Origin: Liolophura sinensis
Taxonomy: Eukaryota; Mollusca; Polyplacophora; Chitonida; Chitonidae
Direction of reading: 5' to 3'
Assembly (NCBI RefSeq): GCF_032854445.1
Contig: NC_088301.1
Coordinates: 59,284,512-59,348,511, forward strand
DNA length: 64,000 nt
Shown: positions 45,075-54,783 of the stretch, piece by piece
Numbering within the stretch: position 1 is the first letter of the stretch
Layout: the number at the start of each line of letters is the position of its first letter
Notes under the pieces: model-generated
The model's database searches: none
What the model saw: the letters and a program-made list of their open reading frames with translations, nothing else
What the model was told of the DNA's origin: nothing
Position numbers and translations under genes: made by a program

Positions 45075-48000
45075 ATGGCGGCTATAAGGAAGAAGCTTGT
45101 GATTGTAGGAGATGGAGCATGTGGTAAAACATGTCTCTTGATCGTGTTTAGCAAAGACCAGTTCCCAGAAGTATATGTACCAACAGTGTTCGAAAACTAT
45201 GTAGCTGATATTGAAGTTGACAGCAAACAGGTAATGATCAAATAAGATGCAAGCCTTATTAGAGCATTCTAATATCTTCAGTTTCATAGGTGAAGGTGGC
45301 TGCTGCCTTGTTTCCATGTTAAAGAAGTTTTGGGATCTGAAGTACTGTATGGATAACCAGTAGAAATCGTCACTGTGAATCCTCAAGTTTTAAGCGTAAC
45401 ATATTGTGATAGAAATACTTTTTGTAGGTCATGTATTTCTGTGATAAATATTGTAGTTTTAGTATTGCGTGTTGTGAAGATTGATCTATTTTTTGTGTAT
45501 TTTAATTTTTTTTTTTATTCAATTGTATTAAAGTTTTTGATATTTTTGGTTCAGCTGTTTCAAGTGCTGATTAAGTGCCTTTGCTTTACATCTTCTCTCT
45601 CTGCTCCAAAATCTACAGCTCTTGTAAATTTTCTTGTCGCGAAGTCGTTTTCTGTTGAACTGCGGTGTTTTTATCCACGTGAGGCCTTCCTGTTGCTACT
45701 TAGACTTTGTCTCATTCCAAGAAGTGGTGAGTTCTGTGTTGCTTTCCTAAGCATGGATGATGGTATCTGGGATGACCAGTACATTTTCACCTTTGCTCCC
45801 TTAACCCACTATTTTTCTATTACTCCTTTTGGATGGATTTATTTGAGGATGTCATTCATTATGTTTTACAAAATGACTGACTTATACAAAGTTAACCCGT
45901 TGATGGTGCAAGTCCTGATTGCCCTGAAGTTTGCAATGAGTGTTTTTACATCCTGTCCTGCATGCTTGAGAATGCTGGGATGATATTCAAAGTTCTGTGA
46001 TGTACTTTGTTATCACCTTTTTGAAATGTGAGATGTCCTAATTGCTAACCAGACCCATTGATTGTGAGAGAAAGTTTAAGAAATCGTTTTGAAATTGTTT
46101 TTAACATAGCATGCCGGCAAACTTACTTGATGAGTATTGTGCAAGGCAGTGTGATGAAACTGCTGTTAATCAAAGTCTGTTAAAAGCTTAACCTATTGTG
46201 TGTGGAGTGAACTAGTGTTTTTATAGGTGAAGTCCTCAGCTTGAAAGTAACAACTGGTTGAAGTTATGTTACTTAATCAGTGTCACTTGCAGCCGGGCAC
46301 TTGCTGAAAAGAACGAAAGTTTTAATATGGTGCATGGAAAGCAAGACATTTTGTCTATCTTGGGTATATTTTTCTCTATGCAGATTCACTTGATTAGTTT
46401 GCGCTGATTGTTGATCGCTGATCGTACTTGAATGTTGGAATGCAAAATCTAAGATTTGATATCACCTTTTGGGACATTTCTTTCCTTTTCGGATATAAAT
46501 GTGTGGCCTTTCGAGGGGGTGGGGGGTGATGCTGGATATGGCTTTAACTGTTGTTATTGCTGAACAGTTATTCCATGATTTTACCTTTTTAGAATTGTCA
46601 ATTTCAGAAACTAGGACATATTTCATTTTGTCTTATTTCTCCGTAAGTTAAAACACCATATTAGACACAATCATGGTTGGAGGGAGGGGATATCACTACT
46701 GCACAGTTGGTCTTGAGGTTTTTTTCCTTTCCATTTGGTTGCCTGATCCAGTTTGCTGCCCTAAAGATGGTCAGAAATATTCACTTTTGTTTTCACATAT
46801 TTGTTGTCTGCCTAGTGACAGGTTACAATTTGCCCCACTGCAAGGGAATTCAGAGTTTGGTTAAGCTAGGAAACTGTTTGTCTTGACCTTCTATTTGTTT
46901 TTAGTTATAGAACATAGCATTTTTTCTACCTGTCACTGAATTTGGGAAGTTGCACCTTATCATTTAAATGAACAGCAGTCAAAGAAAAAAAAAAACATTT
47001 AAGAAACAGGATAAGAAAATTGTCCTTATCTGCTGTTATTTGTGCAGCTCACAACTGTGCTTTGTATAAAAATTAAGATAACTGAATGAAGCATTTACTT
47101 TAGTTAATACTGTTGTGCTGATTCCTTACCATAGTTGATAGTCTTGTTATTCTCAAGTAATATCTAAAGCTGCTGAAAAAATATTGATTGTCATAGGTTT
47201 TGGACAGTAGTCATTACATATATGTATACAAGTGTGTTAGAATAACCAATTTAGTAAAGCCTCAATGGGCACATTGCCAGGATGTTGCATTATCACTTTC
47301 CAGGCTTTTCTTAGTTGCTGTATTATTCCATTTTTCATATTTGTTTGCATCTGTTCTCAATACTTATGTTAAAGTTTTTATTTTAAGTTTGATTAAATTC
47401 ATGCGTATCTAGGGTGTCACATTGAACTTCATTAAATAAATACATCATTTTTGTTTTAATTTTTTTCTTTTGAGACATTAGGTTGTGTTGTATATCTTTG
47501 GCTTCTCATTAAAACCAGTATGTGAATCCTTTTTTTAAAGCATGTCTTGAAATATAACATCAGGGCATGTGCATGGATACCATTTAATGTACAAATGCTC
47601 ATAATTTGAAGCAGGTCCTTTTAGAAATTCAGCATTTCCCATGCAATGTATTACAAATGTAAAAATCTAAAGATAATGTGAAAATCTTGTGCATAATTTT
47701 GTAAGCTGCATATACAAGTATCAATAATTCGAATTAGGAGACTTTTTAAAATGAGTGTCAGTTTGTATTTGGTCACTTATGTTACACTGTCTTCATGTGA
47801 TCATTGTTTTGTGTGTTTCAGGTTGAATTGGCGTTATGGGACACAGCAGGACAAGAGGATTACGATAGACTCCGACCTCTGTCCTACCCCGACACGGATG
47901 TCATCCTCATGTGCTTCTCCATTGACAGTCCGGATAGTTTAGAGAATATACCAGAGAAATGGACACCTGAAGTAAAACATTTCTGCCCTAACGTGCCAAT

Positions 48001-48244
48001 AATCCTTGTCGGCAACAAGAAGGATCTCCGTGGAGATGAGAACACGAAAAGAGAACTGGCTAAAATGAAACAAGAACCGGTTAAATATGAAGATGGTAAA
48101 GGCATGTCTGATAGAATAAATGCTTTTGCATATCTAGAGTGTTCTGCTAAAACTAAGGAGGGAGTTCGGGAGGTGTTTGAAACAGCCACCAGAGCAGCTC
48201 TGCAAGTCAAGAAGAAGAAGAAGAGAGGGTGCAGGATTCTTTAA
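45075..48244 (+). CDS. RHOA: RhoA small GTPase, isoform with proximal terminal exon
   Basis: Membrane-anchored switch controlling actomyosin and cytoskeleton. Coding exons 45075-45230 (52 codons) and 47822-48244 give 192 aa, the usual Rho length. G1 GDGACGKT, switch [14 protein letters not shown], switch [20 protein letters not shown]4 NKKD and G5 ECSAKT are all present, then a polybasic KKKKKRG and the CaaX box CRIL (X = Leu, geranylgeranyl type). The intron falls between Gln52 and Val53, as in vertebrate RHOA. The exon after codon ~122 differs from the distal version: [20 protein letters not shown], then [19 protein letters not shown] good AATAAA lies at 49516, so a transcript could end here. 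Whether this and the distal form are splice isoforms or a partial duplicate is inferred; no second copy of the first coding exon was seen in between. Confidence 0.93.
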
Positions 48245-54200: not shown

Positions 54201-54783
54201 AAGCCGCACGTTTTCTTGAGGTATAGCTTGGTTTCCTATAAAATCATCTCTTTGATGTTTTTTCACCAAAACTACACGACTCACACACGCTTCAGCTGTT
54301 TTTCTGCCATTCTCAGAAGATTGTTAATGTAGATGATGATTTTTTCCCCTCTAATTTCAGGTTGAATTGGCGTTATGGGACACAGCAGGACAAGAGGATT
54401 ACGATAGACTCCGACCTCTGTCCTACCCCGACACGGATGTCATCCTCATGTGCTTCTCCATTGACAGTCCGGATAGTTTAGAGAATATACCAGAGAAATG
54501 GACACCTGAAGTAAAACATTTCTGCCCTAACGTGCCAATAATCCTTGTCGGCAACAAGAAGGATCTCCGAAATGACGAGAGTACGAAGCGAGAACTGATG
54601 AAGATGAAACAAGAGCCGGTTAGGGCCGAGGACGGACGTTCAATGGCAGAGAAAATCAACGCCTACAGCTACTTGGAATGTTCCGCCAAGACCAAAGAAG
54701 GTGTCAGGGATGTATTTGAAACGGCTACTCGTGCTGCACTCCAAGTAAAGAAGAAGAAGAAGGGTGGATGCGCTTTGTTGTAG
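45075..54783 (+). CDS. RHOA: RhoA small GTPase, isoform with distal terminal exon
   Basis: Same first coding exon (45075-45230) joined to 54361-54783; also 192 aa and in the same phase, behind a clear acceptor (CTCTAATTTCAG). Codons 53 to ~122 are identical at DNA level to the proximal exon. The remainder reads [20 protein letters not shown], then [18 protein letters not shown], a polybasic KKKKKGG and the CaaX box CALL. From memory this version is closer to the canonical mollusc-type RhoA C-terminus, and the proximal one looks more derived. Possible polyadenylation signals are at 56798 and 57338. Alternative reading: the orphan last exon of a tandem Rho duplicate whose first exon was lost. 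Confidence 0.85.
48245..53879 (+). other. Region between the two RhoA terminal exons
   Basis: About 5.6 kb. The first ~1.3 kb is probably the 3'UTR of the proximal isoform (AATAAA at 49516). I searched by eye for a second P-loop exon (GATGGAGCATGTGGTAAAAC-like) and found none. No other gene recognised. Confidence 0.5.
53880..54110 (+). repeat. ~28-bp minisatellite upstream of the distal RhoA exon
   Basis: About eight diverged copies of AAATGTGACAAATATCAAGA plus TGTGACAGT, with shortened units, ending 250 bp before the acceptor at 54360. Confidence 0.85.

What the first reader, a model, noticed from the sequence alone, without database searches (positions are those of the whole stretch)
47822..54783. 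Two RhoA terminal exons share an exactly identical 209-nt 5' part, then diverge sharply
47822-48030 and 54361-54569 match base for base, including third positions. From the next base on the exons differ at many synonymous and nonsynonymous sites, through the insert-helix region, the polybasic tail and the CaaX box (CRIL versus CALL). The neighbouring introns are unrelated. This pattern fits gene conversion of one half of an old exon duplication, leaving two RhoA isoforms with identical switch II and different C-terminal halves.
Basis: partly seen in the sequence, partly recalled or inferred. Interest (0 to 1): 0.85.

Follow-up and report, generated by a model that had tools for sequence, protein, structure and literature searches.

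The report
Chiton RhoA's half-converted twin last exons
In a chiton, the gene for the cell-shape switch RhoA has two alternative last exons whose first halves are letter-for-letter identical and whose second halves are about as different as chiton and human, a pattern best explained by DNA having recently been copied from one exon onto half of its ancient twin.

Summary
Two phase-0 terminal exons (47822-48244 and 54361-54783) of one RhoA gene share 209 identical nucleotides, plus the TTTCAG acceptor, then differ at 75 of 214 positions. No codon differs among 69 in the first half. In the second half 35 of 55 codons for unchanged amino acids differ, and synonymous sites are saturated. Flanking introns and 3' ends share no homology. 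The genome has one RhoA start exon and two copies of the tract. It matches the published chiton Liolophura japonica assembly. Codons in the identical half are free to vary between chiton and human (43/69; human sequence from memory), so hidden nucleotide constraint does not explain the identity. Unequal crossing-over would have left identical upstream introns; misassembly is unlikely with HiFi reads. Best explanation: recent ectopic gene conversion of the 5' half, probably B to A, in an old terminal-exon duplication giving two RhoA isoforms. Both ingredients are known kinds: KRAS4A/4B and CDC42 last-exon choice, and newt Nav1.4 exon conversion. The RhoA case, the sharp half-exon boundary and a possible pan-mollusc age are new to me. 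Transcripts and orthologous loci could not be checked.

The parts
43334..43475 (+). candidate promoter and 5' UTR exon of RhoA: TATAAAG at 43334, donor GTAAGT from 43476
   Evidence: sequence motifs only; implied first intron of 1585 bp compares with 1204-1321 bp in bivalve Rho genes that have 3 exons (PMC4669188); inferred
45061..45230 (+). RhoA exon with start codon (ATG 45075), residues 1-52: P-loop and switch I; ends CAG|GTAATG in phase 0
   Evidence: translation; only complete RhoA start exon in the genome
47816..47821 (+). acceptor TTTCAG of exon A, identical to that of exon B; TG-rich, weak pyrimidine tract (longest run 5)
47822..48244 (+). proximal terminal exon A, residues 53-192 and stop, CaaX = CRIL
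47822..48030 (+). conversion tract in exon A (switch II to NKKDLR)
   Evidence: 209/209 identical to 54361-54569
48031..48244 (+). diverged 3' half of exon A: insert helix, alpha4, tail, CaaX
   Evidence: 75 of 214 positions differ from B
54355..54360 (+). acceptor TTTCAG of exon B; strong pyrimidine tract (run of 13)
54361..54783 (+). distal terminal exon B, residues 53-192 and stop, CaaX = CALL
54361..54569 (+). conversion tract in exon B
   Evidence: identical to 47822-48030
54570..54783 (+). diverged 3' half of exon B

Best explanation
One RhoA gene of a chiton carries two tandem, mutually substitutable terminal exons (A proximal, B distal), each encoding residues 53-192 and the prenylation box. 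The exon was duplicated long ago. Later, and recently, a non-allelic gene conversion copied the first 209 nt of one exon over the other. It could reach no further upstream than the splice acceptor because the introns share no homology, and it stopped at codon 122, just before the insert helix. B was probably the donor. Splicing exon 45230 to A (ending the transcript there) or skipping A and joining B would give two RhoA proteins with the same switch I, switch II and GTP-binding core but different insert/alpha4 surface, basic tail and CaaX box (CRIL or CALL, both ending in Leu and so expected to be geranylgeranylated). Shown: exon anatomy, intact frames, identity and divergence pattern, single first exon. 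Inferred: transcription and splicing of both, direction, timing, and selection keeping the 3' halves apart.
For: Identity 209/209 then 75/214 differences. 0/69 against 35/55 synonymous codon differences, P = 5.7e-17. Homology ends at both exon edges. Chiton-human synonymous codon difference in the identical half is 43/69 and in the other half 25-26 of 43-45 (human CDS from memory), so neither half is constrained at the nucleotide level; chiton paralogues agree, with 15-17 of 23-25 shared-residue codons differing. Both exons open, phase 0, full Ras domain, dN/dS far below 1. Single RhoA start exon, exactly two tract copies, no third source. GC3 of the tract (36/69) is close to the B 3' half (39/71) and above the A 3' half (26/71), pointing weakly to B as donor. 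PolyA-type signals follow both exons. HiFi assembly with mean read 8.3 kb, far longer than the 209-nt repeat.
Against: No RNA evidence for either junction. No orthologous eukaryote locus was readable, so the tract is not shown to be lineage-specific. The donor test is not significant (P = 0.09). With only two sequences, one event cannot be told from repeated ones, nor DNA-templated from cDNA-templated conversion.
Confidence: 0.85

Rival explanations
1. Nucleotide-level constraint: the first half of the exon is held identical in both copies by an overlapping signal (splicing enhancers, RNA structure or a non-coding element) on top of the protein code.
For: The tract is in the most protein-conserved part of RhoA (residues 53-121 are identical to human).
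Against: Synonymous codons of this half differ between chiton and human at 43 of 69 (human from memory) and between chiton RhoA and its Rac/Cdc42-like paralogues at 15-17 of 23-25.
Confidence: 0.04
2. Unequal crossing-over between the two exons made a chimera, followed by loss of the original copy.
For: It can give two exons with the same 5' part.
Against: A chimera would carry the donor's upstream intron as well; the upstream introns share no match, and the tract has no substitutions that would allow time for the introns to diverge beyond recognition.
Confidence: 0.02
3. Assembly error: one exon is a mosaic or the 5' halves were collapsed.
For: Coverage is modest (14x HiFi).
Against: Hifiasm overlaps are kilobases long; a 209-nt repeat with unique flanks on both sides should not be collapsed or chimaerised by it. 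Both flanks are unique and frames continue without a scar.
Confidence: 0.03
4. The duplicates are a gene and a non-functional exon copy rather than two used exons.
For: No RNA tested; in oyster the tandem CgRho-2 is barely expressed (PMC4669188).
Against: Both frames intact, good acceptors, amino-acid changes few against saturated synonymous change, polyA-type signals after each.
Confidence: 0.1

Closest known systems
KRAS4A/KRAS4B and CDC42 alternative terminal exons
   Same: Ras-superfamily gene with two last exons that give the GTPase different tails and CaaX boxes; among 167 human members only KRAS and CDC42 do this (PMC9882654).
   Different: Here the gene is RhoA, each exon carries residues 53-192 including switch II and two thirds of the G domain, and half of it has been homogenised. 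KRAS4A is ascribed to capture of an NRAS exon, not tandem duplication.
Newt Nav1.4 duplicate exons 26a/26b with non-allelic gene conversion (PMC8476164)
   Same: Conversion between tandem duplicated exons of one gene, detected as a segment of excess identity.
   Different: There conversion spread toxin resistance; here the converted half is identical in protein anyway, and the boundary precedes the isoform-specific part. Conversion was tested and not found in Dscam exon arrays (PMC3236188).
Oyster tandem CgRho-1/CgRho-2 (PMC4669188)
   Same: Tandem Rho copies, Ks 1.534 and Ka/Ks 0.15, in bivalve Rho genes of 3 exons and a 576-bp ORF like the chiton's. CgRho-2 has an altered G2 loop and incomplete gene data, as expected if it is really a second terminal exon annotated as a gene.
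   Different: Reported as two genes. A Ks of 1.5 over the whole pair argues against a half-length identical tract in oyster. The sequences could not be read here.
Oyster AOX exon 10 duplication (PMC5589949)
   Same: Tandem duplicated terminal exon with alternative splicing in a mollusc.
   Different: Different gene; no mention of gene conversion in the paper.

Membership tests
RhoA subfamily of Rho GTPases | Full G domain with P-loop, switches, NKxD, SAK and Rho insert; closest to RhoA/B/C rather than Rac or Cdc42 | tested here: met
   Best PDB matches RhoA/RhoC/RhoB at 1e-105 to 1e-114, Rac1 at 1e-67 to 1e-68 (run for isoform B); Pfam Ras 181-185 bits for both isoforms
RhoA subfamily of Rho GTPases | C-terminal CaaX ending in Leu after a polybasic stretch | tested here: met
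   [11 protein letters not shown] and [11 protein letters not shown]; prenylation itself not tested
Alternative terminal exons of KRAS/CDC42 type | Two homologous last exons in the same phase behind one shared upstream exon | tested here: met
Alternative terminal exons of KRAS/CDC42 type | Both spliced to the shared exon in mRNA | not testable with these tools
Non-allelic gene conversion | Sharply bounded tract of excess identity, including silent sites, between otherwise diverged duplicates | tested here: met
Non-allelic gene conversion | Tract clusters by species and not by exon type in a phylogeny | not testable with these tools
   no related eukaryote genomes held; scan of genome contigs found none

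The most novel reading that the evidence does not exclude
RhoA has carried two alternative terminal exons since early molluscs (misread as tandem genes in oyster), and gene conversion keeps homogenising the shared catalytic half in some lineages, while selection removes conversions that reach past codon 122, keeping two functionally distinct insert/tail halves apart. The exon pair would then be a natural map of which part of RhoA may differ between isoforms.
Probability: 0.3. Interest if true: 0.65.

Novelty: new variant of a known kind. Interest (0 to 1): 0.5.

Why it matters
RhoA is usually treated as one invariant protein, with tail diversity supplied by separate genes (RhoB, RhoC). A mollusc gene that makes two tails and two insert/alpha4 surfaces by exon choice would be a natural experiment on what those surfaces do. 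The half-exon conversion also shows how shared and isoform-specific parts of one exon can evolve separately, and warns that dating such exon pairs from whole-exon divergence would be wrong.

Tried and rejected
Searching prokaryote species genomes for relatives of RhoA gave nothing. Full-text search for mollusc RhoA tail peptides gave no paper; targeted searches found no report of alternative RhoA terminal exons. Donor direction from GC3 is suggestive only. Unequal crossing-over, nucleotide constraint and misassembly were considered and judged poor fits, as argued above. From memory only: the published Aplysia rho protein resembles isoform B closely, which would put the A/B split before the chiton-gastropod split; I could not verify this here and do not rely on it. 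No structure prediction was run, because the fold is plain from sequence.

Full report
What the window is. The window lies at 59.28-59.35 Mb of contig C7 in an assembly of 609,464,459 bases and 632 contigs. This matches the published assembly of the chiton Liolophura japonica: 609.5 Mb, 632 scaffolds, PacBio HiFi at 14x with mean read 8,347 bp, Omni-C scaffolding, heterozygosity about 1.24% (PMC11068029). The identification rests on size and scaffold number. The eight in-frame TGA codons in the mitochondrial COX1 are what an invertebrate mitochondrion would show.

The gene. The exon at 45061-45230 carries the start codon (45075) and residues 1-52 and ends in phase 0 at CAG|GTAATG. Two exons follow on the same strand: A at 47822-48244 and B at 54361-54783, both opening in phase 0 after TTTCAG and both running through to a stop, giving 192-residue proteins. 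They are RhoA by PDB comparison (isoform B was searched) and carry the full Ras domain in Pfam. Only 14 nt of leader precede the ATG in its exon, so an upstream UTR exon is needed. A TATAAAG at 43334 and a donor GTAAGT from 43476 are a plausible one (inferred); they would give a three-exon gene with a 1.6-kb first intron, close to the three-exon bivalve Rho genes with 1.2-1.3-kb first introns and 576-579-bp ORFs (PMC4669188).

The observation. A and B are identical for 209 nt plus the six acceptor bases, then differ at 75 of 214 positions. Among codons for the same amino acid, 0 of 69 differ in the first half and 35 of 55 in the second; the chance of that segregation is 5.7e-17, and the run length is never reached in 100,000 permutations. 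Synonymous sites in the second half are saturated (45.3 differences over 47.7 sites) while dN is about 0.20, so both second halves have been under purifying selection. The second halves share 55 of 71 residues, hardly more than either shares with human RhoA over residues 122-184 (45 and 43 of 63). The duplication is therefore old.

Why gene conversion. Second, unequal crossing-over would have left matching upstream introns; there is no match between introns or between 3' regions. Third, no third copy exists that could have supplied the tract, and there is one RhoA start exon. Fourth, a 209-nt repeat with unique flanks is no problem for a HiFi assembler. The tract begins where homology begins, at the acceptor, and ends inside codon 122 (CGT against CGA), just before the insert helix. 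This fits ectopic conversion limited upstream by lack of homology. A DNA template and a cDNA template cannot be told apart.

Direction and age. Third-position GC of the tract (36/69) is like the B second half (39/71) and unlike the A second half (26/71), but the difference from A is not significant (P = 0.09); B as donor is a lean, not a result. Zero differences over 45.7 synonymous sites bounds the synonymous divergence since the last conversion at 0.066 with 95% confidence, about five times the individual's heterozygosity, so it may be as young as ordinary polymorphism.

How it would work. The proximal acceptor has a weak, TG-rich tract and the distal one a 13-base pyrimidine run; AATAAA or ATTAAA signals follow both exons. 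Choosing A with its own polyadenylation, or skipping A for B, would give two RhoA proteins with the same switch regions and nucleotide pocket. The 13 differing residues between 123 and 169 fall mainly in the insert helix and alpha4 region (positions 123, 126, 132, 140, 141, 145, 146, 148, 149, 150, 154, 155, 169; structural assignment from general knowledge of RhoA); further differences are in the tail and CaaX box. Effects on RhoGDI or effector binding are inference.

Relation to what is known. Last-exon choice giving a Ras-superfamily GTPase two membrane-targeting tails is known from KRAS and CDC42 only, among 167 human members (PMC9882654). Conversion between duplicated exons is known in newt Nav1.4 (PMC8476164), and was looked for and not found in Dscam arrays (PMC3236188) and cephalochordate G-alpha exons (PMC5896119). 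In oyster a tandem Rho pair with Ks 1.53 was reported as two genes, the second with an altered G2 loop (PMC4669188); I suspect it is the same exon pair misannotated, which would make the duplication older than the split of chitons and bivalves. That is a lead, not a test. If so, the high Ks of the oyster pair implies that the half-exon identity is a chiton-lineage event.

Verdict. A real and clean case. The mechanism is well supported at sequence level; expression and comparative dating are open. It is a new variant of known kinds.

Noticed in passing
G000 contig C6, about 2.54-2.60 Mb (loci L008, L010, L013, L014, L040, L042): A cluster of at least four diverged Rho-like terminal exons (33-46% identical to RhoA) on both strands, with separate start exons: a local expansion of Rho-family genes in this chiton.
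   Followed up: no
G000 contig C99 (L027-L031) and C632: COX1 recurs about every 15.5 kb on C99, seven copies, and once on C632: head-to-tail assembly of the mitochondrial genome, probably an artefact of assembling a circle.
   Followed up: no
window 31745-38157, - strand: Two long open frames; the one at 34885-38157 encodes a P-loop/NACHT protein with an NWD1-like winged-helix domain. The frame at 31745-34192 has no Pfam match and ends in CALM, a CaaX-like tail.
   Followed up: partly
window 14063-17268, + strand: Fragments of an aromatic amino acid lyase (histidine ammonia-lyase type) as exons. On the - strand at 24233-25775 are frames that look by eye like imidazolonepropionase, but they gave no Pfam hit; this may be two histidine-breakdown genes side by side.
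   Followed up: partly
PMC4669188 Table 1 (CfRho 4,290 bp and 193 aa; PyRho 20,748 bp and 192 aa): Two scallop Rho genes with the same three exons and similar first introns differ fivefold in length and by one residue, as if each reference transcript used a different terminal exon. Speculative.
   Followed up: no
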